From Jannaschia sp. Os4 (GTDB lineage: Bacteria > Pseudomonadota > Alphaproteobacteria > Rhodobacterales > Rhodobacteraceae): a stretch of DNA of 64,000 nucleotides. Where the stretch lies: contig NZ_JAFCAR010000006.1 of assembly GCF_016820245.1 (NCBI RefSeq), forward strand, positions 1 through 64,000. Direction: 5' to 3'. The number at the start of each line of letters is the position of its first letter. Position 1 is the stretch's first letter. The notes under the pieces were generated by a model. The model saw nothing but the letters and a program-made list of their open reading frames with translations. It did not search any database and was not told the DNA's origin. Both the position numbers and the translations under genes were made by a program. Shown one piece after another: positions 2,857-17,002 of this stretch.

Positions 2857-5745
2857 TCACGTCGGCACCGTCTCGCGGCCCCGTGCCCAGTCGGTCGCGG
2901 CGGTGGCCGCCGCCGCGCGATGCGCCCGCAGCGCGGCCTCCGCGCGCCGCGTGCGGGCGTCGACCTTCTCGACAACCTTCGGGTCGTCGAGTTCGCGGCG
3001 CACCCATTTCTTGGTCCCGTCGGGGCGGGTGACCTTCTTCAGGACGCTCCCCGGCGTCTCGTAGTTGCGCAGCACGTCCGACGTCGCCGTCCGCAGCCGC
3101 ACCCCCCCGCGGTTCAGCCGCCGCCAGACGCCGCGGTAGTCGCGCCTCATCTCGTCCACGAGGTAGGCCAGCTGCATGTCCATCAGGAACAGCACCCCCG
3201 GGCCCGCCGGGATGCCGCGCCACGTGAACTCGAACAGCCCCCGCCGCCGCGCGCCGGACGTCCACTGCGCGAGGCCCACCCCCGCGGAGCGGGGCCCGCG
3301 CGTGCCGCGCCGCCGCGTCGCCACCGCCCGCGCCGAGAACCGGCGCCGGGCCTTGGACCCCGCGGCGCGCGCGGCGCGCGGGTCGGCGGCGCCCGATCCC
3401 TCGACCCGCTGGGGCAGGATCGAGCTCTCCGCGTCGAGGTTGCCGACGATCGCGGCGGCGGCCACGTCGGACAGGCCGTGGCGCCCGGTCAGCACCGTCA
3501 TCGCGTGCCGCCGCCGGTCGTCGATGTCGACCATGGTCCAGTCCACCATCGGCCCGGCCCGGCCCAGCGAGCGCCGCAGCAGCACCATCGCCTTCGGATC
3601 GACCCGTGCCGGGGGCGTGCCGCCGAACCGGGCCGCCACCACGCCCCGCGCGATCAGCGCCCGCGCCGCCGCGGCGTCCGCCCCCAGGCGGACCGGACCG
3701 GTCCCCGCGCGGTTGCGGTCGTGCTCGCGCTCGAGGAACGCCGTCACCCGCCGCCAGTCGTCCGCGTCCATCGGCATCGCGGGCAGCACCGCGCGGGCCC
3801 AGCCCGCCGCGCCGGTGCCGAGGCCGCGCCACCCGGACGCGGCGTGGAGCGCCTCGCCCACCGACAGGGCGGCCCCGCGCGCGTCGCGCGGCAGCGCGAC
3901 GGCGCCCGGCGGCACCCGGTAGGGCGGGCGGCGCGGCGGCAGCCGGAGCGTGCCGTCGTCCGGGCGGTAGCCCGCCGTCAGCCACGTGGCCACGGCGCTC
4001 CATTGGGTCTGCGTGAGGGTCGGGGTCATGGCATCGGTCTCCTTTGGGTGAAGGGAAGCGGCGCGGATGGCCGCGAGCGCGGCCTCGGGGCGCACCGCGC
4101 CGGCGGCGCTGCCCAGCCCCGCGCCGGGCGGGTCGGGCGGCAGGGCCGCCGCCGTCCGGGCGAGGGCGGCGCGCAGGGCCGCGGCGTCGGCCTCGGGCCG
4201 GGCCTGCAGCATCAGGGCGCAGAGCCCCGCCACGTAGGGGGCGGCCATGGAGGTGCCGCTCTTGCGCGTCGTGCCCCCCGTGGCCCGCGCCGGGCCGCCC
4301 GCCCGCGCCGCGCGGATCCACGTGCCGGGGGCCGCGATCACGGGGACCGCGCGCCCGTCGCGCGACGGCCCCGCCGACGAGAAGGACGCGATGGCGCGCC
4401 CCGTCCGGTCCAGCGCCGCGCAGGTCAGCGTCCGCCGCCCGTGGGCGATGGTGCCGCAGGTGTGGCTGTCGGAGACCGGGCCGCGCACGAAGCGCGACTG
4501 CTGCGTCCCGCGCCCGTCCCGCTCGATCCATGCGTGCCAGCGCCCGTCGCGGACGCGGTCCCCCCGCAGCCCGACCGTCCACAGGCCGGACGGGGCCGAG
4601 GGGTAGAGGAACACGTTGACGTGCGTGTCGCCGTTCCCCGGGTCGCGGAGCCGGTGGTAGGCCCGCCCGACGATCCGCCCGCCGAGCCGTAGGGCCCGTC
4701 GGGCGCCGGGCGGCACGTCGACCGCCCCGAGGCCCGGCCCCGTGAGCGTCACGCCGATCCGGTCCGCGCCCGGATACCAGATCTCGAGCTCGTTCGTGGT
4801 CGCGTCGCCCGGCGCCACCGCCCAGCCGAGCGCGTCCGCGCCGCCGCCGCCGAGGCGCCCGTGCGCGTGGATCGCTTGCCCGCGGTAGTTGCCGGCGCTC
4901 TGGACCACGACCGTGCGGGGCCGCCCGGCCACGTGGTCGAGCGCCTGCTCGATCAGGGTGCTGCCGTCGTGCGGACCGCCGTGGCGCCCCATCGAGATGT
5001 TGAGGACGCAGGGCCGCCCGCCCGCCGTGCGGAGCACGAAGTCCACCGCCTCCAGCACGCGCGCGCTGTCGCCGAAGTTGCGTCGTCCCCCGGTCCCGCG
5101 CGAGGCGACGTGGACGAAGACGAGGTCGGCCTCCGGTGCCATGCCCGTCGGCGCGCCGGGCCGCGCGCTCCCGGCGGCGATGTCCATCACGTGCGTCCCG
5201 TGCCCCGACCCGAGGGCCAGCGGGTCGTGGCCGGCCGCCGCGTACGGGTCCGGCGCGGCGAGCGCGGCGTCCAAGGCGGCCCGGTCGAGGACGCGCCCGT
5301 AGCCGAGATGCGTCCGCTCGCCCGGCGCCGGGCGCCCGTGCTGGTCCCACAGCGCGAGCAGCCGCGTGCCGCCGTCCGGGCGGCGGAAGGCGGGATGGAC
5401 GAAGTCGCAGCCGTAGTCGATCACGCCCACGACCACGCCGCGCCCCGTCTCGGGCACGCGCGGGCGGCGGCGGTCGCCGCCGGGCGCGGCGCGGGCGCGG
5501 CCGTGGGGCGGCGCCGCGCCGTCCGGCGTCCGCAGCCGCCGCCCCGCCTTCAGCGAGGCCACCGCCGGGTGCGCGCGGACCGCGAGGATGTCGCGGCGGT
5601 CCAGCCGCGCCGTGACGATGGGGCCGAACCGGGCCCGCAGCCGGAGCGCGGCGGGCGGCGCGATCCCGGGCCGGAGCCGGGCGATCGCCTCGACCGACGA
5701 GTCCGGCGCGCCGTGCGCGATCTCCTCCCAGAGCTGCGGATCCAT
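2857..5745 (-). CDS. Subtilisin-like S8 protease fused to a phage-tail-lysozyme-like domain
   Basis: Predicted 962-aa two-part protein. Residues about 100-560 form an S8 peptidase with Asp110 (GVIDYG), His182 (GSGHGTHV), oxyanion Asn286 (QSAGN) and Ser499 (SGTSMAAPYVAG), so the triad is complete. Residues about 573-962 form a second module; around 745-840, GNLDAESSILP followed by GVGLAQWTSG resembles the phage tail lysozyme family, with Glu773 as candidate catalytic residue. No signal peptide is visible at either start. The ATG at 5745 follows a GAGGA ribosome site. An in-frame ATG at 4029, at the domain junction, has its own strong ribosome site, so the lysozyme part may also be made alone. 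It is the last gene of the left operon and follows a strong hairpin. Family assignments are from motifs; the role is unknown. Confidence 0.85.
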   Translation of the reverse strand: MDPQLWEEIAHGAPDSSVEAIARLRPGIAPPAALRLRARFGPIVTARLDRRDILAVRAHPAVASLKAGRRLRTPDGAAPPHGRARAAPGGDRRRPRVPETGRGVVVGVIDYGCDFVHPAFRRPDGGTRLLALWDQHGRPAPGERTHLGYGRVLDRAALDAALAAPDPYAAAGHDPLALGSGHGTHVMDIAAGSARPGAPTGMAPEADLVFVHVASRGTGGRRNFGDSARVLEAVDFVLRTAGGRPCVLNISMGRHGGPHDGSTLIEQALDHVAGRPRTVVVQSAGNYRGQAIHAHGRLGGGGADALGWAVAPGDATTNELEIWYPGADRIGVTLTGPGLGAVDVPPGARRALRLGGRIVGRAYHRLRDPGNGDTHVNVFLYPSAPSGLWTVGLRGDRVRDGRWHAWIERDGRGTQQSRFVRGPVSDSHTCGTIAHGRRTLTCAALDRTGRAIASFSSAGPSRDGRAVPVIAAPGTWIRAARAGGPARATGGTTRKSGTSMAAPYVAGLCALMLQARPEADAAALRAALARTAAALPPDPPGAGLGSAAGAVRPEAALAAIRAASLHPKETDAMTPTLTQTQWSAVATWLTAGYRPDDGTLRLPPRRPPYRVPPGAVALPRDARGAALSVGEALHAASGWRGLGTGAAGWARAVLPAMPMDADDWRRVTAFLEREHDRNRAGTGPVRLGADAAAARALIARGVVAARFGGTPPARVDPKAMVLLRRSLGRAGPMVDWTMVDIDDRRRHAMTVLTGRHGLSDVAAAAIVGNLDAESSILPQRVEGSGAADPRAARAAGSKARRRFSARAVATRRRGTRGPRSAGVGLAQWTSGARRRGLFEFTWRGIPAGPGVLFLMDMQLAYLVDEMRRDYRGVWRRLNRGGVRLRTATSDVLRNYETPGSVLKKVTRPDGTKKWVRRELDDPKVVEKVDARTRRAEAALRAHRAAAATAATDWARGRETVPT
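4027..4045 (-). promoter_or_regulatory. Internal ribosome binding site and start at the protease/lysozyme junction
   Basis: On the minus strand AAAGGAG (4045-4039) sits 9 nt before an in-frame ATG (4029-4027), inside the open frame of the fusion gene. The spacing and sequence are as good as those of the true starts in this operon (for example AAGGAGAC before 7092). It predicts a separate product of about 390 residues beginning MTPTLTQTQW. Confidence 0.6.
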
Positions 5746-5777
5746 CCTGTCGGTCCTCGTGGCGGGGTGGGGAAGGG

Positions 5778-5801
5778 GGCGGCCCGGCGCACCGGGCCGC
5801 C
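5778..5801 (-). terminator. Strong GC hairpin between the 168-aa gene and the protease gene
   Basis: Perfect 10-bp inverted repeat (GGCGGCCCGG, loop CGCA, CCGGGCCGCC) starting about 10 bp after the upstream stop. There is no clear U tract on the minus strand, so it may attenuate transcription or protect mRNA rather than fully terminate. Confidence 0.5.
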
Positions 5802-5811
5802 GCGAAGGGCC

Positions 5812-6318
5812 TCAGCCCTTCTTCGCGGAGGCGGGAGGGGCCTCCAGCGCGACGAGGCGCCCGTCGAACGCGACCAGCCCCTCGCGCATCTCGTCGCGGC
5901 TCGCGCGGACCAGCTCGTGCAGGTCCTCCGCGAGCGGCTCCATCGCCTTGCGCACGACCTTCGGCTCGGCCTCGACCATCCGCTGCACCGACCGCGCGAG
6001 CGACTCCCGCCCCTCCGGGGTCCGGAAGAACCCCTCCACGGAGGCGGCGGTGACGACCTGCTCCGTCGAGGGGTCGTCGGCCACCACGACGTCGTCCGCG
6101 TCCCCGTCCGAGCCGATGGCCCTCGCCTTCGGCAGCCGGCTCTCGATGAGCCGGTCGGAGAGGATCAGCTTCACCAGGAGGTTCCCGGGGATCATGCTGG
6201 TCAGCAGCGCGACCCGGTCCGCCTCGGAGGCGTCGAGCCCCTTCTCGCGGCCCCGACGCTGGGCGAGCACGTAGCTCCCCACGTCGAAGCCGCCGGGGGC
6301 GGCGTCGAACACGCCCAT
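5812..6318 (-). CDS. Hypothetical 168-aa helical protein in the S8-lysozyme operon
   Basis: I do not recognise a family. The 168-residue product has no signal peptide or membrane span. Residues about 30-65 are a Leu/Ile-rich helical stretch (LLTSMIPGNLLVKLILSDRL), about 70-85 an acidic loop, and about 95-158 a long charged helix that may be a coiled coil. It ends in a short Lys tail (SAKKG). It starts 3 bp downstream of the preceding gene's stop and is followed by the hairpin at 5778-5801. The tight spacing supports expression with the two upstream proteins. Confidence 0.7.
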   Translation of the reverse strand: MGVFDAAPGGFDVGSYVLAQRRGREKGLDASEADRVALLTSMIPGNLLVKLILSDRLIESRLPKARAIGSDGDADDVVVADDPSTEQVVTAASVEGFFRTPEGRESLARSVQRMVEAEPKVVRKAMEPLAEDLHELVRASRDEMREGLVAFDGRLVALEAPPASAKKG

Positions 6319-6321
6319 GGC

Positions 6322-7092
6322 TCAGTCCCCCCCCTTGATGGCGTCCGCGAAGACGAGGAGCATCAGCGGGTTGTCGAAGCCCATCCCGCCGCCGTCCTTG
6401 CCGCCGAGGCCGCCACTCATCAGCAGCGGGAGCAGCTTGGAGAGCATGTCGCCCTTCTCGGAGAGCTTGACCTCCTTGCCGACGCCGAAGTCGGACCCGG
6501 CCTGCACCGTGTAGGTCTTGGTGCCGCCGTCCATCAGCGAGAACAGCATCTGCATCTGCGCCTGCGACGCCATGTCGGCGCGCATCTTGTCGATGGCCTT
6601 GGTCTGGACCTTGTCGACCCGCGCCAGCGTCCCGATCCGGCGCGCGTTGGCCTTGATCGCCTCGTCCGTGGTCCGGATCGCCGCGCCGTTGCGGCGCACG
6701 TCCACGCGCACCTTGCCCAGCGACTTCGCCAGCTCGGCCCGCGTCACGAGGCCCCGGATCTGGCGGCTCGTGACGTAGCCCCGCCCGGTCGCCGTCCGCA
6801 GCGTGCGCCGCACGCCGCGCCGCACCCGGCGCCGCCCGCGCCGGCGGATGTTGCGGACGAGCCCGCCGATGAACTCCGGCGCGTCGTCGTCGAACGCTTC
6901 GTCGTCGTCGTCGTCGTAGAAGCCCTCGTCCTCGTCGCCCCAGTCCTCGTCGTCGTCGTCGTCCCAGTCGAACGACCCGTCGAGATCGTAGGCGTCCAGG
7001 TCGCCCATGTCCTCCCAGTCGTCGTCGCCGCGGTCGAACGCCATGTCCTCCGGCGCGAGGCCCTCGGCCGCGCGGATCTCGTCGTAAGTCAT
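6322..7092 (-). CDS. Hypothetical 256-aa protein with an acidic block followed by a basic block
   Basis: The start at 7092 is chosen because AAGGAG precedes it at good spacing and the ATG overlaps the preceding stop by 4 bp (ATGA); the frame is open further upstream but runs over the previous gene. Residues 20-70 are almost continuous Asp/Glu with scattered aromatics, residues 79-100 are a run of Arg (NIRRRGRRRVRRGVRR), and 110-175 look like a charged helix or coiled coil. The C-terminus (175-256) is Met/Leu/Gly-rich (QAQMQMLFSLMDGG, LLPLLMSGGLGG). Such charge segregation suggests self-association or assembly. No known domain is recognised. Confidence 0.75.
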   Translation of the reverse strand: MTYDEIRAAEGLAPEDMAFDRGDDDWEDMGDLDAYDLDGSFDWDDDDDEDWGDEDEGFYDDDDDEAFDDDAPEFIGGLVRNIRRRGRRRVRRGVRRTLRTATGRGYVTSRQIRGLVTRAELAKSLGKVRVDVRRNGAAIRTTDEAIKANARRIGTLARVDKVQTKAIDKMRADMASQAQMQMLFSLMDGGTKTYTVQAGSDFGVGKEVKLSEKGDMLSKLLPLLMSGGLGGKDGGGMGFDNPLMLLVFADAIKGGD

Positions 7093-7535
7093 GTCTCGTC
7101 TCCTTCGAGCAGGATGGCGCCGTCCCAGCGGACGCGGCGCGGATGGTCCGGGCGGCGGAGGCCGCCCGGCATGGCGGTCCGGCGGCCCCTGCGGGCCAGG
7201 ACCGGAGCGATGAAGAAGGCGAACCCGTCCGGGTCCGGCGCCCGCGCTCCCGGCGCGCCGCGCCCCGCGCAGGCGGGACAGCCCCCGTCCGTGCCGAAGC
7301 AGCAGGCGCAGGCCCCGATCGCGGCGGCGAAGCGCGCGATCAGGTCCGCCCGCGCGTCGATGCGGTCGATGTCGGGCGAGGCGTCCCCCTCGGGCGGCGG
7401 GAGGTCCGCCCCGATCGCCTCGCCCGCGTCCGCCTCGGCGGACGATCCGGCCATGTGGTCGAGCAGCGCGCGCTGCAGCGGCGACAGGTCGTCGCGCCGC
7501 GCGCCGAGCGCCTCCATGAGCAGCTCCGGGGTCAT
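7089..7535 (-). CDS. Small hypothetical protein with a Cys cluster (possible zinc knuckle)
   Basis: 148 residues. Positions 76-89 carry five cysteines in the pattern CACC-x6-CPAC followed by AGRG, resembling a zinc-binding knuckle with a DnaJ-like CxxCxGxG flavour. The N-terminal half is helical and acidic; the C-terminus ends in RVRWDGAILLEGDET. It overlaps the upstream and downstream genes by 4 bp each, so the three are probably translationally coupled. No signal peptide is present, consistent with a cytoplasmic protein. Zinc binding is inferred from spacing only; function unknown. Confidence 0.7.
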   Translation of the reverse strand: MTPELLMEALGARRDDLSPLQRALLDHMAGSSAEADAGEAIGADLPPPEGDASPDIDRIDARADLIARFAAAIGACACCFGTDGGCPACAGRGAPGARAPDPDGFAFFIAPVLARRGRRTAMPGGLRRPDHPRRVRWDGAILLEGDET

Positions 7536-8467
7536 CGGACGATGTCGAAGGGATGGATGTCCCCCGCCTCGTCCCAGTCGTCGTCCCCGTCATCGTCGTC
7601 GGACCAGTCGTCCCAGTCCCCGGCCGCCTCGGTCAGCGCCTCGAGGGCGGCCGGATCGCCCGGGACGGCGGCCAGGAGCGCCAGGGCGTCCTCCGCCTCC
7701 TCCCCCGCGCCGCCCTGCGCCGCGAGGCCCACGCTCGACATGACCGCGTCGACCGGCACCCGGCGCCCGCCCACGATCACGGTGCCCCGCCCGGCCCGCC
7801 CGATCAGCGCGGCCATGATCGACTGCAACACCTCGGGTCGCGCCAGCATCTGCATCAGCAGCTGCGCCGCGATCGCGCTCGCCGGAGCGGGGGCCTGCCG
7901 CGCGACCGTCCGGCGCAGCCGGACCTGCGGTCGCGTGGGCGGGCGCACGGGGCGGCGGCGGGGCGGCCCGTGCGGGCGCCGCACATGGGCGCGGGGCCGG
8001 GGCCGCGCGGACCAGGTCGGGCGGGGCGCGGGGCGCGGGGCCGGGCGGCGCGGGGCCGCGCCCTGCTTGGCGAAGCTGCCCAGCAGCGCGAGGCCCGCCC
8101 CGGCGCCCGCGCCGATCGCGGCCCCCTTCGGCCCCAGCATCATGCCCGACTGCGCCCCGGAGGAGGCGCCCTTCGCGATCGCCGGGAGCGCCTTCACCAG
8201 GGCGGGGCCGACCGTCTTGGCCACCTTGCCCACCGCGCGCCCGATGCTCTTGAGCGACCACTCCGCCTCCTCGGCCGAGAGGCCGGACAGCGCCTCGAAC
8301 TCGACCGCGAAGGCCTCGTCGTCCAGCGGGCCCAGCTCCTCCGCCGCCACGGCGCGCAGGGTCGGGTAGCGCGAGCCCGGCCACCCCGCGTCCTCCGGGC
8401 CGGAGTCCGCCCAAGCCTCCGCGCCGTCGAGGCCGAACAGCTCGTCGTCGTCGTAGGGATCCCGCAT
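7532..8467 (-). CDS. Hypothetical 311-aa protein: cationic helix, glycine zipper, Pro/Arg linker, acidic tail
   Basis: First gene of the left operon, preceded by the divergent control region. Residues 71-99 (SLKSIGRAVGKVAKTVGPAL onward) form a Lys/Arg-containing amphipathic helix resembling membrane-active peptides. Residues 100-132 are a Gly/Ala glycine-zipper stretch (AAIGAGAGAGLALLG). Residues 137-186 are a Pro/Arg-rich linker, 195-255 a hydrophobic helical region (IAAQLLMQMLARPEVLQSIM), and 283-300 an acidic Asp/Trp block. There is no classical signal peptide. The acidic tail could shield the basic region. I recognise no family; membrane insertion is an inference from composition. Confidence 0.75.
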   Translation of the reverse strand: MRDPYDDDELFGLDGAEAWADSGPEDAGWPGSRYPTLRAVAAEELGPLDDEAFAVEFEALSGLSAEEAEWSLKSIGRAVGKVAKTVGPALVKALPAIAKGASSGAQSGMMLGPKGAAIGAGAGAGLALLGSFAKQGAAPRRPAPRPAPRPTWSARPRPRAHVRRPHGPPRRRPVRPPTRPQVRLRRTVARQAPAPASAIAAQLLMQMLARPEVLQSIMAALIGRAGRGTVIVGGRRVPVDAVMSSVGLAAQGGAGEEAEDALALLAAVPGDPAALEALTEAAGDWDDWSDDDDGDDDWDEAGDIHPFDIVR

Positions 8468-8535
8468 CTCTCGTCTCCTCGCTGCATGTCGGATCGCGTC
8501 TCCCCACCCTCATCGCGCACCGAATCCACGACTCC

Positions 8536-8563
8536 CTCACGGGCCGCTCACGCCACGCTCACG
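8536..8563. promoter_or_regulatory. Candidate SARP operator: three heptamers at 11-bp spacing
   Basis: CTCACGG/C occurs at 8536, 8547 and 8558, each separated by 4 bp, giving an exact 11-bp period; a weaker copy (TCCACG) lies one period upstream at 8525. SARP regulators are known to bind direct heptamer repeats at this period. The site lies in the 159-bp region between the divergent SARP gene and the five-gene operon. Confidence 0.6.
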
Positions 8564-8626
8564 GACGGGGCCGATCGTCGATTCGCACGGCCCCGCATGG
8601 GGGCCGAATTCGAAACGGAGCCTTTG

Positions 8627-9397
8627 ATGACCCTTCGCATCCACCTCTTCGGCGGCCTCCGCCTCCAACGCGGCCCCCGCGCCCTGCCCCTCGCCGCCGA
8701 CACGCCGCGCGCCCTGCTCGCGATGCTCGCGCTCAACCCCGGCCAGACCTTCGCCCGCGGCGAGTTGTCCGGACGGCTCTGGCCCGACCTCGACGGCGAG
8801 CGGGCCCGCGCCGCGCTCTCGACCGCGCTCTGGCGCCTCAAGCGCGCGACCGGCGGACTCGATCTCGTGGAGGCGCCCTCGCGCGGGACCGTGCGGCTGG
8901 GCGGCGCGGCGCGCCCGTGGATCGACGTTCCCGCCTTCGAGCGGCGGCTCGACCGGCTGCGCGCCCTGCCCGCGCCCGACCTGCGGCTGGCGCGCCGCGC
9001 GGCGGAGGCCTGCGCGCGGCCCGCCCTGCTTGACGTCGAGGGCGAGTGGGCCGCGACCGAGGCCGAGCGGCTGCGCGGCCTGCGGTCCGAGGCGCTGGAG
9101 GCATGGATGCGCGCGGCCCGCGCCGAAGGCCGCGCCACCGAGGCGCTGCACGCCGCCGCGATGCTGATCGAGGCCGAGCCCTTCGAGGAGGCGCCGCGCG
9201 CCCTGCGCTGCGCCCTGCTCGCCCGGCGGGGCAGCCGGGCGCGGGCGCGGATGGAGCACCGCCTCTTCTCGGCCTTCCTCCAGCGCGAGCTGGGCGTCGC
9301 GCCGGGGTTCGGCCCCGACGGCGAGCCCCACGCCGATCCGACCGTCCCGCCCGCCCCGCCCGTCGGCCCCGCCGCGCCGGCCTATGCCGTCAGATGA
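8627..9397 (+). CDS. SARP-family transcriptional activator (winged helix plus BTAD domain)
   Basis: 256-aa regulator. Residues 1-85 form an OmpR/SARP-type winged helix (RIHLFGGLRL, then ALLAMLALNPG and a recognition-helix region AALSTALWRLKRA). Residues about 95-235 are the helical bacterial transcriptional activation domain typical of SARPs, including GRATEALHAAAMLIEAEPFEE. The ATG at 8627 has a GGAG site 7 nt upstream. It is divergent from the left operon and the shared intergenic region holds 11-bp-period repeats, so it probably activates that operon. Its 3' end overlaps the second regulator gene by 8 bp, tail to tail. SARPs are best known from Actinobacteria. Confidence 0.85.
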   Translation: MTLRIHLFGGLRLQRGPRALPLAADTPRALLAMLALNPGQTFARGELSGRLWPDLDGERARAALSTALWRLKRATGGLDLVEAPSRGTVRLGGAARPWIDVPAFERRLDRLRALPAPDLRLARRAAEACARPALLDVEGEWAATEAERLRGLRSEALEAWMRAARAEGRATEALHAAAMLIEAEPFEEAPRALRCALLARRGSRARARMEHRLFSAFLQRELGVAPGFGPDGEPHADPTVPPAPPVGPAAPAYAVR

Positions 9398-10871
9398 GGT
9401 CCGCGCGCGCGACCTGCAGCAGGTCGCGGCGGCGGAGCCCCGCGACCGGATAGTCCGGCTCCAGCATCCGGCGCGGGGCGAAGCCCGGCTCCAGCCGGGC
9501 CAGCACGGCGAGCGCCTCCGCCGCCTCCGCCTCCAAGCCGGCCCGGAACGCCAAGGCGGCGACGAAGCGGCGCGGGGCGCGCGCCTCGGGGGCGTGGGCG
9601 ACCGCGCGGCGCGCGTGCTCGAGCGCCGCGCCGTCCCGCCCCGCCAAGACCGCCGCCGAGGCCGCGGCCAAGGCCGCGCTCGCAGGGCGCCGCTCGGACT
9701 GGACCCCGCCGCGCGCCGCGAGCGCGAGGCGGTACGCCTCCTTCGCCCGCCCCGCATGCGCGAGGGCCGCGACCGCCGCGAAGGTGGCAATCCCCTGCCC
9801 CGCGTCGCGCCGCCGCGCCTCGCCCACGAGGTCCAAGGCGGCGCCCACCTCCCCCTGCCGCAGGCGCACCAAGGCCAAGGACGACAGCACGATCGGGTTG
9901 CCCGGCTCCGCCTCCCGCGCGCGCAGGGCGAGGTCCGCCGCCTCCGTCAGCACCCGCGCCCCCGCCAGCCGCTCGATCTCCCGCGCGTGGTAGATCTGGG
10001 CGCGCAGGGCGTCGGCCACGGCGGGCCGCAGCCCGCTCCGCCCCGAGGCGAGCACCGCCTCGTCCCGGTCGAGATCGGCGGGCGAGAACCGCCCGAACGC
10101 GTCCAGCCCCCGCAGCCCCGTCACCTCCAGCGCGGCCAGCGCCATCCGGTGGCTCGCCCGGCCCAGCCGCACGCCGAGGCCGGGGCGGTCGAGGTCGATC
10201 GTCTCGAGATGCGACCACATCCGCCCGCTGCGCTCGTCGGTGGCGCGCAACTGCACGACCGTCGCGCTCCCGCCCGTCGCCACGGCCCCGAGGCGCAGCC
10301 CCGTGCCCGCCGCGTCCCGCGCCCCCGCCGCCACCCGCAGGTCGACGAGGTCGGCCAGCCGCTGCGCCGCCTCGTGGACCAGCATCTCCGCGATGGGGTG
10401 GGGGGCCGCGCCGAGGTCCGCGCGCAGCACGAGGGGGCCGTCGCCCGGCGGCGCGGCCCCCCGCCCGTCCTCCGCCTCGAAGCCCATGCGCCGCTCGCGG
10501 AGCCAGTCGTCGAACTCCGGGTCGGGGATGTCGAGGTCCGCGCAGAAGCGCGCGCCCTCCGCGACCGGGGGAAGGCGCACACGCACCGCCTCGGGGTCCA
10601 GCCCGATCCAGCCCGGCCCGCCCACGAGCGCGCCCCGCGCGTCCCTGAGGCCGCGCCGGATGGCCCCCAAGGTCGTGCGCAGGCTCGCCCCGCCGCGCGC
10701 CGCGTCGCTGTCCGACCACAGCCGGTCCTGCACCGCCGCCCGGCTCAGCCTCAGGCCCGGCGCGCAGCCGAGCAGCGCCAGCACCGCGCGGGCCTTGGCG
10801 CCGCGCGGCGTCAACTCCTGCCCGTCCGGCGTCAGAACCCGGACGGGACCGTCGAGGACCAAGTCGAGCAC
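9390..10871 (-). CDS. Second SARP-like regulator with long C-terminal helical/TPR-like region
   Basis: About 493 aa. The N-terminus (VRVLTPDGQELTPRGAKARA, then LLGCAPGLRLSRAAVQDRLW) is a SARP/OmpR-like winged helix; a central region carries LDIPDPEFDDWLRERR; the C-terminal 220 residues are Ala/Leu-rich helices that look like TPRs (YHAREIERLAGARVLTEAAD, IVLSSLALVRLRQGEVGAAL). The start is uncertain: the GTG at 10871 is close behind GGGAGG (2 nt), and a TTG at 10862 is better spaced for the same site. The frame also continues upstream over the next gene's start, which I rejected. It is divergent from the PAP2 operon and probably controls it. Confidence 0.75.
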   Translation of the reverse strand: MLDLVLDGPVRVLTPDGQELTPRGAKARAVLALLGCAPGLRLSRAAVQDRLWSDSDAARGGASLRTTLGAIRRGLRDARGALVGGPGWIGLDPEAVRVRLPPVAEGARFCADLDIPDPEFDDWLRERRMGFEAEDGRGAAPPGDGPLVLRADLGAAPHPIAEMLVHEAAQRLADLVDLRVAAGARDAAGTGLRLGAVATGGSATVVQLRATDERSGRMWSHLETIDLDRPGLGVRLGRASHRMALAALEVTGLRGLDAFGRFSPADLDRDEAVLASGRSGLRPAVADALRAQIYHAREIERLAGARVLTEAADLALRAREAEPGNPIVLSSLALVRLRQGEVGAALDLVGEARRRDAGQGIATFAAVAALAHAGRAKEAYRLALAARGGVQSERRPASAALAAASAAVLAGRDGAALEHARRAVAHAPEARAPRRFVAALAFRAGLEAEAAEALAVLARLEPGFAPRRMLEPDYPVAGLRRRDLLQVARADLI

Positions 10872-10979
10872 GGCCTCCCGCCCCTTGCCTGATCGGACCA
10901 GCCTAGACAGTATCGCCTCCACCGCAACGGCGCACCCCGCTCGCGGCGGGACGCGCCCCCATCCGGAAGGGGCCCGCCC

Positions 10980-12032
10980 ATGTCGTTCCTGCACGCCGAG
11001 CACGCCGAACATGCGGAGCACGCCGAACACGCCGAGCATGCCGAGACCGCGCGCGGCCAGCGGGGCGGCGTCCTGGCGAGCGCCCTGATCCGGGCACGCG
11101 AGGCGCTGGTCGGCACCGACGAGATCGCGGTCGACCCGTCCATGGTCCGCGCGGAGGAGGACGAGGCCGGCGGCGAGGCCGCGCGCCTCGCCCGCCTCGC
11201 CGCCGGCCACCGCGCCGCCGTGCTCGCCTTCGCCGCGATGGAGGGGCTACGCGTCGCGCCCGCAGCCGGCGGCGTCGCGCTGCACCGGGACGGCGCCCCC
11301 CTCGCGACCTTGGTCCGCCCGTCGCCGGAGGTGCTGGCCGAGGGCCTCGCCCTCGTGGCGGGCTACGCCGACCTGCGCACCGACCGCGCCGCAGAGATCG
11401 ACGCGCAGGTCACCGCGCTCCTGCCCTTCCTCGGCGCCGTCGCGGGCCTCTCCGCCGCCCGCACTCCGCGCACGCTGGACCTGCTGTCGCTCGTGATCGA
11501 CTGGTCCGGCGCGGTCGGCCAGCGCATGAAGCTCGCCCTCGGCGTCCCCCGCCCGCACACGCTCTCGCCGCTGGTCCAGCCGATGATCCGCACGCCCGAC
11601 CACGGCGCCTACCCGTCGAACCACGCGGTCCAGTCCTTCGCCGCCGCCGAGACCCTCGCCGCGCTCGCGGGCGACCCGACCGGCGACGGCGCGCTGGCCG
11701 AGCAGCTGCGCCGCATGGCCGCCCGCATCGCGATGAACCGCACCGTCGCGGGGGTCCACTACCCGGTCGACAGCGCGGCGGGCGCGGTGCTGGGCACCAC
11801 CCTCGCCCGCCACCTGCGCGCCCGCGCCACCGGCGGCCCGGCCCCCGCGCCCGCGACCTTCGACGGCACCGGCTGGACCGCCGCCGACCTCCACGGGACC
11901 GGCGTGGCCGCCGCGCGCGACTTCCACCTCGACGCGATCCGCGACCGCCTCGCGGACGCACCCGGCGACCCCGTCGCCCGCGATCCGCTCCTCGGGGCGG
12001 CGTGGGACGCGGCGGCGGCGGAATGGCCGTGA
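10980..12032 (+). CDS. Soluble PAP2 / vanadium-haloperoxidase-like phosphatase with N-terminal HAE repeat
   Basis: 350 aa. The PAP2 phosphatase/haloperoxidase signature is complete: Lys184-x6-Arg191-Pro (KLALGVPRP), a PSNH motif at 212-215, and Arg254-x5-His260-x3-Asp264 (NRTVAGVHYPVD). PSNH replaces the common PSGH. No clear transmembrane helices or signal peptide are visible, so a soluble haloperoxidase-like or acid-phosphatase-like enzyme is more likely than a membrane lipid phosphatase. Residues 5-22 are six perfect His-Ala-Glu triplets. It is the first gene of the right operon, with its stop overlapping the next start. Confidence 0.85.
   Translation: MSFLHAEHAEHAEHAEHAEHAETARGQRGGVLASALIRAREALVGTDEIAVDPSMVRAEEDEAGGEAARLARLAAGHRAAVLAFAAMEGLRVAPAAGGVALHRDGAPLATLVRPSPEVLAEGLALVAGYADLRTDRAAEIDAQVTALLPFLGAVAGLSAARTPRTLDLLSLVIDWSGAVGQRMKLALGVPRPHTLSPLVQPMIRTPDHGAYPSNHAVQSFAAAETLAALAGDPTGDGALAEQLRRMAARIAMNRTVAGVHYPVDSAAGAVLGTTLARHLRARATGGPAPAPATFDGTGWTAADLHGTGVAAARDFHLDAIRDRLADAPGDPVARDPLLGAAWDAAAAEWP
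10992..11045 (+). repeat. Six 9-bp units encoding (His-Ala-Glu)6
   Basis: Six in-frame 9-bp repeats of the form CAY-GCS-GAR directly after the start codon region. Synonymous differences (CAC/CAT, GCC/GCG, GAG/GAA) show it is not a freshly slipped array. A His/Glu-rich N-terminus may bind metal; that is inference. Confidence 0.9.
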
Positions 12033-12247
12033 CCCCGCCCGACGCCCCCCGCTGGTCCGCGCCCCGCCGCCCGGAGGATGCGCCGGACCTGCCCTATGTC
12101 GACCACTGGTTCCACGCCCGCGCCGCCCGGACCGCCGCCGCGCCGGCATGGCGGAAGCACGTCGAGCCGCCCGCCGCGGACGTCCCGCGCGCTCTGTCCG
12201 ACGCGGTGGAGCAGGTCCTGCGCGACACCGACGAGGCCGCATCGTGA
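12023..12247 (+). CDS. Small hypothetical 74-aa protein between PAP2 and S8 genes
   Basis: Starts at the ATG at 12023, overlapping the PAP2 gene by 10 bp, and ends in a GTGA overlap with the protease start at 12244, so all three are probably translationally coupled. The product is Pro/Ala-rich with the sequence LPYVDHWFHARAARTAAAPA in the middle and a helical C-terminus (ALSDAVEQVLRDTDEAAS). It has no signal peptide or known domain. Position directly before a protease invites the idea of an inhibitor or folding partner, but nothing in the sequence proves it. Confidence 0.6.
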   Translation: MAVTPPDAPRWSAPRRPEDAPDLPYVDHWFHARAARTAAAPAWRKHVEPPAADVPRALSDAVEQVLRDTDEAAS

Positions 12248-13968
12248 TCGCCCGCGAGCAGCTCGAGGCCTTCCGCCCCCTCAGCGAGAACCTCTCCGCC
12301 TTCCTGCGGCCCGACAGCGTCCATCCGCGCGCGGGCGGCCCCGGCGACCCGCGGGCGACCCACCCCCTCGCCTATCCCGACGGGCCCGAGCCGGACCCCC
12401 ACGGCTTCCTGTCGGACGGCGCGGTCCCGGAGGACGAGGACTTCCGCATCCTCGCGGTGATCGACGACGTCCTGCCGCTCACCCACCGGACCCTGCAGGC
12501 CGCCGACGGCGCCTCGCGGATCGCCTCGGTCTGGCTGCAGGGCGCCCGCGCCGCCCCGTCCCGCGACCCGGACGCGCCCGGCCGCGACCTGCCCTTCGGC
12601 CGCGAGCTGCGCGGGCCCGCCATCGACGCGCTGCGCCACGCGCACACCCACGGCGGCACGCTCGACGAGGAGGCGATGCTGCGCGCGGCAGGCCTCGTCG
12701 ATCCGGGGCGCGGCGCGCTCCACTGCGGGGGGCGCCGCGCCCGCCACGGGGCCGCGGTGACCGACCTCCTCGCCGGGGCCGAGCCGGGCGACCCGCTCGC
12801 CCGGTGCCCCGTGATCGGCGTCGGCCTCGCCCCCGAGGTGGTCCGCGACACCCTCGGGACCTTCGCGCCCTACTACATCCTCGCGGCGACGCTGCACGTC
12901 CTGCACCGCGCCCGCCGCCTCTGCCGCTGGATCGAGGCCCGGCGCGGCTGGGAGGCGGGGCGCCTCGCGCCGCCGGTGGTCGTCAACCTCAGCTTCGGCC
13001 TCACCGCGGGGCCCAAGGACGGCTACGGCCTCGTCGAGCGGTTCCAGGACGCCGTCGCCCGCGAGGCCGACCGTCCCGGCGCGGACCCCGCCGACCGCCT
13101 CGGCCCGGTGCGCTTCATCCTGCCGGTGGGCAACCACCGCCTCGCCCGGTGCCGCGCGGCGCTCCGCCCGCGCGAGACCGTGACGTGGCGCGTCGCCCCC
13201 GGCGACCGCACCCCCTCCTTCGCGGAGATCTGGGGCCCGCCGCGCAGCGCCCTGCCCGAGCGTCCGATGCAGGTCGCCCTGCGCCTTCCGGGCGGCGCGG
13301 AGATGCGGACCGCCTTCACCGCGCACGGGCAGCGCACGGATCTCGAGGCCCCGGACGGCACGAGCCTCGCCACCGCCTATCTCTCGCGGGCCTCCGTCGG
13401 CGGCACGGTGCGCGAGACGATCACCCTCGCCCTTCCCCCGACGGACGGCTCCGTCCCCACGGCGGGGCCGGGCGGCCACGGGATCACGCTGCACGCCGAC
13501 GCGCCCGCAGACCTCTACGTGCAGCGCGACGATTCGGTGCGCGCCTACGCTTCCGGCGGCCGGCAGTCCCACCTCGACGACGGCGCCTACGCGCCGACCG
13601 ACCCGTCGGGCCGCCCCCGCGCCCACGACCCCGGCACGCCCGGCCCCGTGCGGCGGAGCGGGACCGTCAACGCCTTCGCCTGCGGACGCCATCAGGTCCG
13701 GGTCGGCGCCGTGACGGAGGCCGGGGCGGAGGTGCCCTACTCCGCCCTCCCCGAGGGCGCGCCGGACGGGCGCGACCACGCAGCGGTGGCCGAACGCGGC
13801 GTCGCCCGGCGCGGGGTCGTCGCCCGGGGCCTCTATGCCGCCTCCGCCGAGGCCGCCTCCGGGACCAGCTTCGCCGCCCCCCAAGTGGCCCGCGCGCTCG
13901 TGGCGGACGGGGGGACGATCGGCCCCGCCGCCCTCGTCCGTCCGTGGCGCGCCCATCGGGAGTGGTGA
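12244..13968 (+). CDS. Second subtilisin-like S8 protease
   Basis: 574 aa from a GTG start overlapping the previous stop. The S8 triad appears conserved in a diverged form: Asp74 (LAVIDDVLP), His168 (RARHGAAVTDLLAG), oxyanion Asn297 (LPVGNH) and Ser542 (SGTSFAAPQVAR). An insertion of about 90 residues separates the Asp and His motifs, and a beta-rich insert lies between Asn and Ser (about 305-520), so the protein is larger than a minimal subtilisin. The His motif lacks the usual HGTH, so activity is likely but not certain. No signal peptide. Last gene of the right operon; it ends 5 bp from the convergent parB gene. Confidence 0.8.
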   Translation: MIAREQLEAFRPLSENLSAFLRPDSVHPRAGGPGDPRATHPLAYPDGPEPDPHGFLSDGAVPEDEDFRILAVIDDVLPLTHRTLQAADGASRIASVWLQGARAAPSRDPDAPGRDLPFGRELRGPAIDALRHAHTHGGTLDEEAMLRAAGLVDPGRGALHCGGRRARHGAAVTDLLAGAEPGDPLARCPVIGVGLAPEVVRDTLGTFAPYYILAATLHVLHRARRLCRWIEARRGWEAGRLAPPVVVNLSFGLTAGPKDGYGLVERFQDAVAREADRPGADPADRLGPVRFILPVGNHRLARCRAALRPRETVTWRVAPGDRTPSFAEIWGPPRSALPERPMQVALRLPGGAEMRTAFTAHGQRTDLEAPDGTSLATAYLSRASVGGTVRETITLALPPTDGSVPTAGPGGHGITLHADAPADLYVQRDDSVRAYASGGRQSHLDDGAYAPTDPSGRPRAHDPGTPGPVRRSGTVNAFACGRHQVRVGAVTEAGAEVPYSALPEGAPDGRDHAAVAERGVARRGVVARGLYAASAEAASGTSFAAPQVARALVADGGTIGPAALVRPWRAHREW

Positions 13969-13973
13969 GGGCG

Positions 13974-15065
13974 TTAGAGCGGCCCGAGTAGCCGCTCGAT
14001 CTCGTGCATCACCGCCTCGACGACCTGCGTCGACACCGGCCCCTCGAAGCGGATCATGTGACCCTTGGCGTCGGTCACGTGCCGGGCCGACATGCCGTTG
14101 GCGAGCTCGACCCTACGATAACCCACTGATTTCGATAGTTTATCGGCGGGATCGATCCCCCCTGCCCCGCCGTCCTTCGCCCTCCTGCGCCGGGCGCCGT
14201 CCTCCGGCGGCAGGACCGCGGCCAGGACGGGGGCGAGCACCCCCCACTCCGCCTCCGCGTCGGTCCCCATCCCTGTCCCCAAGGCCTGCCGGAGCGCCGG
14301 CCCCTGCCGCGCCTTGATCGCCTTGGCGAGGCGTAGGCACTGCCGCTCCGACAGTTCCTGCGGGAAGGTCAGCAGGTCGCCCAGCTCCTCGTGGACCAGC
14401 GCGAAGGACCGGACCTTCGACCGCTTCGCCTTGGACGCCTGCGCGAAGAGCGCGTTGGTCGCCGCCTCGAGGTCGGGGAACGCCCCGTCCCGCACGGCGG
14501 TCGCGGCGATCCGCCCCCGCTCGTAGGAGGACAGGTCCGCGCGCATCTCGTTCTCCTCGACCATCGCGACCAGCGCCTCGGGTCGGCTCCGCGCGGGCCG
14601 GACGAAGGCGCGGATCGTGGCCCCCTGCCCCGCCACGTCCCGCGTCGCCGTCAGCCGCCGGAGCCCGGACACGAGGTCGTACTGCCCCCCGTCCCGCTCG
14701 GTCACCTCGATCGGCAGTCGCAGCCCGTTCTCGCGGATCGAGCCGCGCAGCTCCTCCATCCCCTCGGGATCCAGCCTCATGCGGTCCCGCGTCATCCCGT
14801 CCGTCCGGATCGCCTCGAGGGGCAGGTCGCGCACGAGCCAGCCCTCCGCCTCGGCGCGCCGCCACGCCTCCGCGTCGCGTCGGTCGCGGACCCGCGCCGC
14901 TTCCTGCTCGGGCGTCTCGGCGCTGCCCAGCGAGGCGGCCTCCGCCGCGACCTGCGCGATCGGCGCCATCCGGGGTTTCGCTGCGAAACCGCCGGCGGCC
15001 GTCTCCGCGTCCAGCTTCGCGAGGTCCTCCGCGGACGGGGCCTCCAGCTTCCTGCGCCGCGCCAT
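13974..15065 (-). CDS. parB: ParB/RepB-type plasmid partition protein
   Basis: 363 aa. Residues about 85-185 form the ParB/Srx-like domain (LPLEAIRTDG, ELRGSIRENGLRLPIEVTE, YDLVSGLRRLTAT, VEENEMRADLSSYERG), followed by a helix-turn-helix region (LEAATNALFAQASKAKRSKV) and a C-terminal part ending EAVMHEIERLLGPL. It should bind parS and bridge plasmid copies to ParA. The start at 15065 has GGAGG 7 nt upstream and overlaps the parA stop, giving a parAB operon. The gene contains a 15-bp palindrome, a candidate parS, at 14975-14989. Confidence 0.92.
   Translation of the reverse strand: MARRRKLEAPSAEDLAKLDAETAAGGFAAKPRMAPIAQVAAEAASLGSAETPEQEAARVRDRRDAEAWRRAEAEGWLVRDLPLEAIRTDGMTRDRMRLDPEGMEELRGSIRENGLRLPIEVTERDGGQYDLVSGLRRLTATRDVAGQGATIRAFVRPARSRPEALVAMVEENEMRADLSSYERGRIAATAVRDGAFPDLEAATNALFAQASKAKRSKVRSFALVHEELGDLLTFPQELSERQCLRLAKAIKARQGPALRQALGTGMGTDAEAEWGVLAPVLAAVLPPEDGARRRRAKDGGAGGIDPADKLSKSVGYRRVELANGMSARHVTDAKGHMIRFEGPVSTQVVEAVMHEIERLLGPL
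14975..14989. promoter_or_regulatory. Candidate parS palindrome inside parB
   Basis: GTTTCGCTGCGAAAC, a perfect inverted repeat with 7-bp arms and a central base. An identical copy lies in parA in a different reading frame. Similar GTT...AAC palindromes serve as centromeres of alphaproteobacterial partition systems. Confidence 0.6.
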
Positions 15066-16450
15066 CACTCGCCTCCCCCGTTCCGTTCCATCTCGTCGCG
15101 CCACCAGCATCCCAGCAGCAGGTCCTTGAAGTCGGCGTAGGTCCGGTCGAACGCCTCGCGCCCCCTCAGGTAGGTGTCGCGGTTGAAGTCCCGCGGATCG
15201 GCCTCGTAGATGCCCGAGACCCGCTCGCCGGCCTGCCCGACGAGTGCCGTGAACTCTTGGCGGTGGGGGGCCATCATGTCCCCGAAATAGGCCTGCACGA
15301 CGTTCGCGAGATCGGCCTGCTGCCCCGCGTCGTAGCGGGTGAGCACCGTCCGGACCGCATCCCACTCGAACCGCTGCTCCGGCAGCCCCGCGGTGCGGCG
15401 CACGGCGTTGTCGCCCTCCTCGATGCTGGCGAAGGTCGCGTGGAGCATGTCGAAGAACCGGCCCGTCGAGTCGAACTCGAGGAAGGACGCGCCCAGCGGG
15501 ACGAGCAGGATGTCCGCCGCCGAGAGCGCGTTGATCGTCAGGTAGCCGAGGGCGGGCGGCGTATCGAGCAGGACGATGTCGTAGGCGTCGAGCAGGCCCT
15601 CGGCCTCGAGGAAGTTGGGCAGGGCGTCCCAGAGCGGCCAGTCGCGGGCGGTCATGCGCCAGACGGGGATCTGGAACTCGGCCCAGTAGAGGTTCAGCTG
15701 CGCGCCGATGAGGTCGATGTTGGGCCAGTGCGTCGTCTGGACGACGTCCTTCGCCGTCACGTCCAGAGCGGCGGTCATCGTCTCGTCGAGGGGCAGGGGG
15801 GCGAGGCCCTCCGCCTCCCGGACGTGGTTTCGCTGCGAAACGTGGCTGGCGTAGTCCTTGGCCAGCAGGGGGAAGACCGTGGACCATTCGTCGGGCACGT
15901 CGCCCCCGAGGATGGAGGTCATGGAGCCTTGGGAGTCGAGGTCGATCACCAGCACCCTGTAGCCGTCCAGCGCGGCGGCCATCGCGAGATGGGCCGCAGT
16001 GGAGGTCTTGCCGACCCCGCCCTTGAAGTTGGCGACGGCCACGACCTTGGCCTGCACGCCGTCGGGGCGCCACGGCTTGTACTGCTTCGCCTTCGACCCC
16101 TCGGAGTCGAAGTGGTCCCGGAGGGCCACGATCTCGTCGAGGGTGAACCACCGCGTCCCGCCCGATCCCTCGCCTTGGGGCAGGTCGGGGTTCGACTTGA
16201 GCACGCGCCGGAAGTGGGCGGGCGCGACGGGGATCATGTAGCGGCAGATCTCCCACGTGGAGAACCGGCGGAGGCGCTTGGTCCCGTCAGGGGCGTAGCC
16301 GCGCTTGGCGAGGTCCGTGCGGCCGTGGGCGGCGCGGGCGGCGGCTTGGGCGAAGCGGCTGGTGCCGACGGGCTCGGTGAGGCGGTCGAAGCTGCGCTCG
16401 GGGTCGAGGCCGTGATAGGGGGGCGGGGGGAGGTCGGGCTTGCGGGTCAT
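15065..16450 (-). CDS. parA: ParA/RepA-type partition ATPase
   Basis: 461 aa. An N-terminal MerR-like DNA-binding region (about 60-115; RFSTWEICRYM, RWFTLDEIVALRDHF) precedes the ATPase domain with a deviant Walker A KGGVGKTS at 143-150, a LVIDLDSQGS motif and LLDTPPALGYLT. This layout is typical of plasmid ParA proteins that autoregulate. ParA moves or positions plasmid copies together with ParB/parS. It is divergent from rep across the origin region. The size is normal for the family. A 15-bp candidate parS lies inside the gene at 15827-15841. Confidence 0.93.
   Translation of the reverse strand: MTRKPDLPPPPYHGLDPERSFDRLTEPVGTSRFAQAAARAAHGRTDLAKRGYAPDGTKRLRRFSTWEICRYMIPVAPAHFRRVLKSNPDLPQGEGSGGTRWFTLDEIVALRDHFDSEGSKAKQYKPWRPDGVQAKVVAVANFKGGVGKTSTAAHLAMAAALDGYRVLVIDLDSQGSMTSILGGDVPDEWSTVFPLLAKDYASHVSQRNHVREAEGLAPLPLDETMTAALDVTAKDVVQTTHWPNIDLIGAQLNLYWAEFQIPVWRMTARDWPLWDALPNFLEAEGLLDAYDIVLLDTPPALGYLTINALSAADILLVPLGASFLEFDSTGRFFDMLHATFASIEEGDNAVRRTAGLPEQRFEWDAVRTVLTRYDAGQQADLANVVQAYFGDMMAPHRQEFTALVGQAGERVSGIYEADPRDFNRDTYLRGREAFDRTYADFKDLLLGCWWRDEMERNGGGE
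15827..15841. promoter_or_regulatory. Candidate parS palindrome inside parA
   Basis: Identical 15-bp copy of the parB palindrome. Here it encodes V-S-Q-R-N, whereas in parB the same DNA encodes F-A-A-K, so protein conservation does not explain the identity. It uses A/T-rich codons in very GC-rich surroundings. Confidence 0.6.
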
Positions 16451-16639
16451 GTCGCTCTCTGCTCGGGCGGGTCATGCGATTCCACGCATGTTGCCCGAAT
16501 CGTCGCACATGAACCGCCCCGAGTGAATCGGTTTCCCCGAATCCGGAGGAGACGCGCAACAGCAAGGTTGTGAGTCTTGAGGGTCTTTAGAAGGTTTGGG
16601 TCGCGTAACCCACGCCGTGCCAAGCGAAACCTCGGGGCA

Positions 16640-16745
16640 GGGGACCCAGACGCGGGACGGGGGGCACCCGGCTGCGGGATCGGAGGAACCCGGATGCGGG
16701 GGAGCAGGCACCCGGGGACGGGGCGACGGGAACCTGCCTACGGGA
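16640..16745 (+). repeat. Five iterons at exact 22-bp spacing
   Basis: The core ACCC/T recurs at 16644, 16666, 16688, 16710 and 16732, exactly 22 bp apart. Each core is followed in most copies by GG and, about six bases on, GCGGGA or ACGGG. This is the expected initiator binding array for an iteron-controlled Rep_3-type replicon. Confidence 0.8.
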
Positions 16746-16764
16746 CCGATTCGCCGGCGGGACG

Positions 16765-16850
16765 CGGAGCAGGGCCTATTGCAAGGGAATCGGACGATCC
16801 GGGGCCGGGCGAACGGTGCTCCGGCCCGCCGCGCAACGGGCCCTGCTCCG
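16765..16850. repeat. 12-bp inverted repeat flanking 62 bp in the origin
   Basis: GGAGCAGGGCC at 16766-16776 is exactly inverted at 16839-16849 (GGCCCTGCTCC), with a further matching base pair in one arm. It lies between the iterons and the operator palindromes and may be structural or mark a second protein-binding region. Confidence 0.5.
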
Positions 16851-16885
16851 GAGTATCCCGGAAACGGGTGCCTTTCCGTCCCGTA

Positions 16886-16959: not shown

Positions 16960-17002
16960 GTGCCAGAACGGCGGGGCAGGGGAATCGCGGATGGAGCGGG
17001 CG

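What the first reader, a model, noticed from the sequence alone, without database searches (positions are those of the whole stretch)
2857..13968. Mirror-image locus with two SARP regulators and two subtilase operons
Seen directly: [five-gene operon ending in S8-lysozyme, minus][SARP1, plus][SARP2, minus][PAP2, 74-aa, S8, plus]. The two regulators overlap tail to tail by 8 bp, and each is divergent from one protease operon. None of the protease, PAP2 or companion proteins has a signal peptide. SARPs are mainly known from actinobacterial secondary metabolism. Together this looks like one regulated, plasmid-borne system of proteases, a cell-wall lytic domain, a haloperoxidase-like enzyme and membrane-active or assembling companions. 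A toxin, injection-particle or antagonism function is inference.
Basis: partly seen in the sequence, partly recalled or inferred. Interest (0 to 1): 0.82.

Follow-up and report, generated by a model that had tools for sequence, protein, structure and literature searches.

The report
Twin protease operons, species-coded peptide arrays
A bacterial plasmid carries two uncharacterised protease operons side by side: one recurs in unrelated bacterial phyla, and the other encodes an enzyme that nearly always starts with a perfectly repeated short peptide, spelled differently from lineage to lineage.

Summary
The gene map is confirmed. Contig ends overlap exactly by 127 bp and rep/par genes follow, so it is probably a circular ~117.7-kb plasmid. 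Each half is a conserved system of its own.
(1) SARP1 plus operon A-B-C-D-E (E = CspB-like subtilase + lysozyme). The order recurs in five other bacteria (two relatives, Streptomyces, Cupriavidus, Gemmatirosa); D by position only. All four SARP-linked copies have TCAC direct repeats 10-11 bp apart between SARP and A, the known SARP operator design; the two copies with other regulators lack them.
(2) SARP2-like wHTH-TPR regulator, PAP2, small ORF, subtilase. In 96 loci picked by PAP2 similarity the subtilase is next door in 91 and a regulator in 95. 92 of 96 PAP2 proteins carry an N-terminal perfect tandem array (52 different units; HAE x6 here). Neighbouring units avoid identical codons, so the peptide, not the DNA repeat, is selected. 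The PAP2 model resembles soluble class A acid phosphatases more than haloperoxidases.
The halves mostly occur apart, but B of (1) also follows the subtilase of (2) in 17 Paracoccus loci, which links them. Function is inferred: probably protease-activated lytic/membrane-active effectors. Nine literature searches found neither system described.

The parts
7532..8467 (-). gene A, 311 aa: acidic N- and C-termini around a glycine-zipper-like hydrophobic core (layout by eye)
   Evidence: held-out profile of five relatives finds it at 5.6e-33; alignment
7089..7535 (-). gene B, 148 aa: GAC..C.G....C..C.G.G.PG..PD motif, probably metal-binding (inferred)
   Evidence: a Paracoccus B protein finds it at 2.3e-8
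6322..7092 (-). gene C, 256 aa: very acidic leader (net -26 in first 60), Arg-rich stretch, helical/coiled region, hydrophobic C-terminus (layout by eye)
   Evidence: held-out profile 1.5e-37
5812..6318 (-). gene D, 168 aa, unknown; counterpart by position only
   Evidence: held-out profile does not find it
2857..5745 (-). gene E, 962 aa: CspB-like subtilase + phage-tail-lysozyme-type domain
   Evidence: Pfam, PDB, held-out profile 4.1e-159
8534..8563 (+). proposed SARP1 operator: three 8-bp direct repeats, CCCTCACG/CGCTCACG/CGCTCACG, period 11 bp
   Evidence: 0 of 500 shuffles reach it; CTCACG triple: one exact match in the window, two overlapping matches with up to 2 mismatches against 0.01 expected
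8627..9397 (+). SARP1, 256 aa, BTAD regulator
   Evidence: Pfam BTAD 1.2e-9
9390..10922 (-). SARP2-like regulator, 510 aa: winged helix + TPR
   Evidence: family profile A3
10980..12032 (+). PAP2 / class A acid-phosphatase-like protein, 350 aa, residues 5-22 = (HAE)6
10992..11045 (+). N-terminal peptide array (HAE)x6, four different 9-bp spellings
12023..12247 (+). 74-aa companion; counterparts of 57-88 aa in the Paracoccus loci printed; in one open frame with S8 in L104 and probably L071
   Evidence: 2.6e-12 and 2.4e-4
12244..13968 (+). second CspB-like subtilase, 574 aa

Best explanation
Two conserved, SARP-type-regulated protease modules sit side by side on a plasmid. Module 1: SARP1 binds tandem TCACG repeats and switches on A-B-C-D-E. 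A and C look like acid-masked, membrane-active or self-associating proteins; E is a subtilase carrying a cell-wall hydrolase domain. I think the subtilase cleaves or matures A and C (and perhaps itself), producing a lytic cocktail aimed at neighbouring cells or at the producer itself. Module 2: a TPR-bearing regulator controls a soluble phosphatase-fold enzyme whose disordered N-terminal peptide array is an interaction or cleavage element for the co-encoded subtilase. B works with either. Shown: gene sets, homology, synteny, operator repeats, arrays and the selection on them, intact catalytic residues, predicted fold. Inferred: every biochemical step, the targets, and how the proteins leave the cell.
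For: Operon A-E in six genomes: held-out profiles find A 1.5e-8 to 1.3e-38 and C 7.4e-8 to 2e-41 in all 6; B in all 6 (window, G917, G919; L152, L153 held out; L148); E 4.1e-159 to 2.1e-185 in the four tested, S8 by Pfam in the other two. E has a lysozyme domain in the window and G919, peptidoglycan-binding domains in Cupriavidus; patatin or a weak OmpA match follows it in G919/G917, an M4 peptidase in S. canus. BTAD regulators in four of six. Operators. Module 2: subtilase directly downstream in 91 of 96, regulator within 3.3 kb in 95 of 96; arrays in 92 of 96 against 0 of 94 subtilases and 2 of 95 regulators; 594 of 1861 identical adjacent codons against 738 +/- 18. Shared B; shared subtilase type.
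Against: No export gene found inside the locus, no immunity gene recognised, no signal peptides. D is not homologous by profile. The modules are usually separate, and B was found in only 17 of 96 PAP2 loci read. G917's E is a bare subtilase. PADLOC gives only a generic subtilase and a weak IetS match to E. Nothing shows that A or C is cleaved or membrane-active.
Confidence: 0.35

Rival explanations
1. Intracellular regulated proteolysis: as with CspB in spore germination, the subtilases activate cytoplasmic partners in a stress or developmental switch; the PAP2 array is a degron, adaptor site or length-setting spacer, and the lysozyme domain serves the cell's own wall.
For: Best solved relatives of both subtilases are CspB-type germination proteases; no N-terminal hydrophobic segments; regulators with TPR C-termini.
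Against: Lysozyme, peptidoglycan-binding and patatin partners suit wall or membrane attack; the plasmid location suits an accessory trait.
Confidence: 0.25
2. Two unrelated operons placed next to each other by plasmid recombination.
For: Adjacency seen in one genome; modules separate in G917 and alone in G919; PAP2 family in 93 of 295 genera but B in 3 of 295.
Against: B is shared by both kinds of module (17 Paracoccus loci); same type of subtilase and regulator.
Confidence: 0.2
3. Self-assembly: homogeneous arrays (PAP2) and glycine-zipper/acidic proteins (A, C) form a species-private filament, condensate or particle that holds the enzymes; identical units bind only to like.
For: Arrays perfect in peptide but diverse in codons, predicted disordered here, at least 61 unit changes on the tree; many units resemble sticky low-complexity motifs (GGF, SAY, NNS; recalled).
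Against: Units are chemically very different (acidic, basic, aromatic, Gly only); no structural data.
Confidence: 0.15

Closest known systems
SARP/AfsR regulators of Streptomyces
   Same: SARP1 has a BTAD domain; the promoter beside it has 8-bp direct repeats at 11-bp period, the design described for SARPs (PMC10936776, passages seen)
   Different: hosts include alphaproteobacteria, and the target is a protease/wall-hydrolase operon, not an antibiotic cluster
CspB-type germination subtilases
   Same: best solved relatives of both subtilases; catalytic residues intact
   Different: not spore-formers (recalled); E fused to lysozyme or other domains; partners A-D or PAP2
Class A nonspecific acid phosphatases (PhoN type)
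   Different: no N-terminal hydrophobic segment, N-terminal peptide array, nearly always beside a subtilase
Vanadium haloperoxidases
   Different: weaker match; oxidation chemistry untested
Cdz glycine-zipper bacteriocins of Caulobacter (PMC5380434, abstract and outline seen)
   Same: glycine-zipper proteins in an alphaproteobacterium; lysis of neighbours is the suspected outcome
   Different: [quoted passage not shown] none recognised here; no protease core here recalled for Cdz
MoxR-vWA conflict systems (PMC7159879, passages seen)
   Same: peptidase effectors; a MoxR/vWA-like cluster lies beside the PAP2 module in relative G018 (by sequence reading)
   Different: no MoxR or vWA match in this locus; the words PAP2 and BTAD do not occur in that paper's main text

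Membership tests
SARP family (SARP1) | BTAD domain | tested here: met
   Pfam 1.2e-9
SARP family (SARP1) | direct-repeat operator at 11-bp period in target promoter | tested here: met
   definition from PMC10936776. Distance to a -10 element not tested
SARP family (SARP1) | activates transcription of the divergent operon | not testable with these tools
   needs experiment
SARP family (SARP2) | BTAD domain | tested here: inconclusive
   no Pfam hit at E<=1; family profile matches AfsR at 4.9e-7 over positions 5-84 and TPR chains
CspB-like subtilases | catalytic Asp-His-Ser plus oxyanion Asn | tested here: met
   module 2 S8: invariant D74, H168, N297, S542
CspB-like subtilases | similarity across the whole catalytic region | tested here: met
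   E residues 95-514 vs 9sj6 1.6e-25; module 2 family profile 3.2e-22; no subtilase structure predicted
Class A acid phosphatase | fold | tested here: met
   [not shown]
Class A acid phosphatase | periplasmic, with signal peptide (feature recalled) | tested here: not met
   no N-terminal hydrophobic segment; so 'works like', not filed as a member
Vanadium haloperoxidase | vanadate-site Lys, Arg, Ser, His, Arg, His (motif recalled) | tested here: met
   K184, R191, S213, H215, R254, H260 invariant; shared with phosphatases
Vanadium haloperoxidase | halide oxidation | not testable with these tools
   needs assay
Cdz-type bacteriocin | type I secretion genes in the locus | tested here: not met
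   none among the ten proteins of 2857-13968; an ABC transporter lies at 18287-20083 beyond the par/rep genes
MoxR-vWA conflict system | MoxR ATPase and vWA protein | tested here: not met
   no match in the ten proteins

The most novel reading that the evidence does not exclude
The PAP2 arrays are a species-private peptide code: the co-encoded subtilase cuts the homogeneous N-terminal array into identical tri- or tetrapeptides that the co-encoded winged-helix TPR regulator reads, giving each lineage its own intracellular or exported peptide signal. TPR receptors for short peptides and subtilisin-matured signals are known separately (recalled); a signal encoded as a tandem array on an enzyme would be new.
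Probability: 0.08. Interest if true: 0.95.

Novelty: categorically new. Interest (0 to 1): 0.82.

Why it matters
About a third of sampled genera of the family (93 of 295, this genome included) carry this PAP2 family, and in 92 of 96 loci examined the enzyme starts with a repetitive peptide that evolution keeps homogeneous yet rewrites between lineages. I know no bacterial precedent for such a conserved-in-form, free-in-sequence tag, and its meaning is directly testable. Separately, a five-gene operon shared by Alpha- and Betaproteobacteria, Gemmatimonadota and Streptomyces, with matching TCAC operator repeats where a SARP is present, suggests that SARP control extends beyond actinobacterial antibiotics and marks a probable new effector system with interchangeable wall- and membrane-directed domains.

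Tried and rejected
Rejected: DNA microsatellite or slippage as the reason for the arrays, because adjacent units avoid identical codons; copy number does vary between strains. Judged unlikely, not tested directly: the repeats as SARP2 operator DNA, because the DNA spelling differs between units and species while the peptide is constant. No sign of phage origin: B has no relative in viral contigs (0 of 16 pattern matches confirmed); PHROGs matches E (protease, endolysin, weak tail matches) and gives only weak matches (E 0.03 or worse) to SARP1 and PAP2. Not supported: the link between hydrophobic units and same-strand regulators (41 of 48 against 3 of 43, Fisher 6e-15) rests on 2-3 independent tree pairs, so it may be one inherited event. 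Not supported: homology of D. Weak: the 74-aa ORF as a detached N-terminus of the subtilase; two loci show it in one open frame with S8 (L104 2.6e-12, L071 2.4e-4), the other matches (E 0.099 or worse) overlap the reversed-sequence control (best 0.15). An aerolysin-like look of the S. canus E C-terminus is my impression only (Pfam silent). pN/pS 0.007 is biased, since arrays were picked by peptide identity; the codon test is the fair one. Low-yield searches. Searches scored only a few candidates per genome (3 and 8), so their counts are lower bounds. Literature: nine searches (listings and abstract starts seen) gave no description of either system; the library holds open-licence papers only.
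Full report
OBSERVATION. Translational overlaps (A/B, B/C 4 bp; PAP2/74-aa 10 bp; 74-aa/S8 4 bp) make both sets look like single transcripts. The two regulators overlap by 8 bp tail to tail; each diverges from one operon (gaps 159 bp and 57 bp). The replicon is very probably a plasmid: Rep3, ParA and ParB follow at 13974-18280 and the 117,846-bp contig begins and ends with the same 127 bp.

MODULE 1, SARP1 + A-B-C-D-E. tblastn of E on plasmids (35 records, most of them matching the subtilase part only) led to Streptomyces canus (L148), Cupriavidus oxalaticus (L152) and Gemmatirosa (L153); a search with a Paracoccus B protein led to two unnamed members of the same family, G917 and G919. All six loci have the order A-B-C-D-E; G917 has one extra coiled-coil-like gene before E. 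In S. canus B is an ORF not listed in the plasmid annotation, L148:7417-7977 (4.1e-13). Profiles built without the test genome find A at 5.6e-33, 2.1e-12, 2.3e-20, 3.1e-36, 1.3e-38 and 1.5e-8, and C at 1.5e-37, 7.4e-8, 2.1e-17, 5.6e-9, 2e-41 and 2.1e-10 (window, L148, L152, L153, L176 = G919, L175 = G917). D is not found this way in five of six (0.019 in L148), so it is a positional counterpart only. E is 4.1e-159 to 2.1e-185 in the four loci tested and S8 by Pfam in G919 and G917. The part of E behind the subtilase differs: lysozyme in the window and G919 (Pfam), peptidoglycan-binding in Cupriavidus, no clear Pfam domain in S. canus, only a sub-threshold lactamase-fold match in Gemmatirosa's 2,253 aa, nothing in G917. 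Patatin (G919) and a weak OmpA match (G917) follow E; an M4 peptidase follows in S. canus. The regulator beside A is a BTAD protein in the window, S. canus, G917 and G919, an AraC-type response regulator in Cupriavidus and a LuxR-type one in Gemmatirosa. Other plasmid subtilases of this type (Rhizobium, Agrobacterium, Sphingobium, Paenibacillus) were looked at in seven further records without a recognised A-C set (profiles covered these loci). At E <= 1e-40, E-type subtilases occur in 3 of 398 sampled Pseudomonadota genomes including this one (a lower bound).

OPERATOR. Between SARP1 and A lie CCCTCACG-GGC-CGCTCACG-CCA-CGCTCACG (8534-8563), three 8-bp repeats at 11-bp period (0 of 500 shuffles; CTCACG triple exact once in 64 kb). 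S. canus has the same arrangement (TCAC at 6321, 6332, 6343; 0 of 500). G919 has four (10869, 10880, 10891, 10902; 14 of 500 for its best triple in a 625-bp stretch). G917 has three between SARP and A at 10392, 10402, 10413, spacing 10 and 11 (this stretch was not shuffle-tested, and the region upstream of its SARP showed nothing). The two operons with other regulators have a single TCAC in that stretch. Over 1.71 Mb of fetched DNA the triple TCAC-N7-TCAC-N7-TCAC occurs 9 times, 4 of them (two overlapping in G919) in these promoters; at the ten other spacings tried 0-2 times. The motif was first seen in the window and S. canus, so G919 and G917 are the independent cases. SARP operators are described as direct repeats 11 or 22 bp apart, with AfsR contacting the first 8 bp (PMC10936776, passages seen). 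So SARP control of A-E is well supported by anatomy, though not shown by experiment. No such repeat reached the reporting limit in the 57-bp SARP2-PAP2 gap.

MODULE 2, SARP2-like + PAP2 + small ORF + S8. Among 60 relatives, this genome included, PAP2 matches 18 and S8 matches 9 genomes. The 17 loci read from there and 80 named loci (mostly Rhodobacterales such as Paracoccus, Salipiger and Phaeobacter, also Stappia, Microvirga, Methylobacterium, Bradyrhizobium, and the betaproteobacteria Hydrogenophaga and Polaromonas) give, with the window and after dropping one duplicate and one non-module, 96 loci: S8 found in 94, immediately downstream on the same strand in 91, regulator within 3.3 kb in 95. 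The 80 were picked by PAP2 similarity only, and the 17 from PAP2 matches, so the neighbours are independent evidence. In a survey of 295 genera of the family, 93 have a PAP2 of this kind at E <= 1e-30 (neighbours not examined there).

LINK BETWEEN THE MODULES. B of module 1 also stands behind the subtilase of module 2, on the same strand, in 17 of the 21 Paracoccus loci among those read, and in none of the other PAP2 loci except the window. Both subtilases have CspB-type proteases as best solved relatives and align to each other over the whole catalytic region (hhalign 1.4e-38). G917 carries both modules at different places, the second with a (GGL)n array; G919 carries only A-E. G018, whose PAP2 is closest in identity, has beside it acidic-leader proteins, one weakly like A (hhalign 67%; profile 8.2e-6 to 0.078 where listed). 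B itself is rare: 3 of 295 genomes of the family and 1 of 385 of the class, this one included. So the modules are independent but seem to belong to one functional family.

MECHANISM AND RIVALS. Most likely the subtilases act on partners encoded beside them. For module 1 the partners A and C join acidic parts to hydrophobic or Arg-rich parts, and E or its neighbours bring enzymes or binders of wall and membrane; a protease-matured lytic cocktail, for attack or self-lysis, fits best (about 0.35). A CspB-like internal switch (0.25), chance adjacency of two operons (0.2) and self-assembly through arrays and glycine zippers (0.15) remain. Nothing here proves secretion, cleavage or killing.

NOVELTY. 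PADLOC gives only a generic subtilase and a weak IetS match; nine literature searches (named in Tried and rejected) found neither system. Closest in spirit is Cdz (PMC5380434, abstract and outline), which needs a type I secretion system that this locus lacks.

Noticed in passing
window 20543-35209: A 4,888-aa ORF of repeated units starting with a signal-like leader, followed by a 1,195-aa ORF; a giant surface or adhesin-type protein by its look.
   Followed up: no
window 31177-31277, minus: ARAGORN calls a tRNA-Ser inside that giant ORF on the other strand; probably a false positive.
   Followed up: no
contig ends (window 1-127 and L048 end): Identical 127 bp at both contig ends, so the replicon is probably circular, about 117.7 kb; 86% identical copies lie at 5-311 and 215-521.
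   Followed up: partly
L148:7417-7977: B gene in the S. canus plasmid that is not in the listed annotation.
   Followed up: yes
L152:3105-3611: Shortened second copy of A on the opposite strand, next to an 809-aa ORF with peptidoglycan-binding-like sequence (by reading).
   Followed up: no
L029:532-6929: By sequence reading a MoxR-like ATPase, a vWA-like protein and a SWIM-type protein beside the PAP2 module of G018.
   Followed up: no
L150, L154: E-like subtilases on Rhizobium and Agrobacterium plasmids lie with caspase and phospholipase-D-like genes (L150 also S53 peptidase and serine protease) and a short ORF resembling E's N-terminal region by eye.
   Followed up: no
L165: P. inhibens M647 plasmid: annotated PAP2 shorter than in other strains and the annotated ORF after it short, so the module looks disrupted.
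   Followed up: no
L037:13418, L044:12394: TCAC triples at 11-bp period also near the regulator genes of two PAP2 modules.
   Followed up: no
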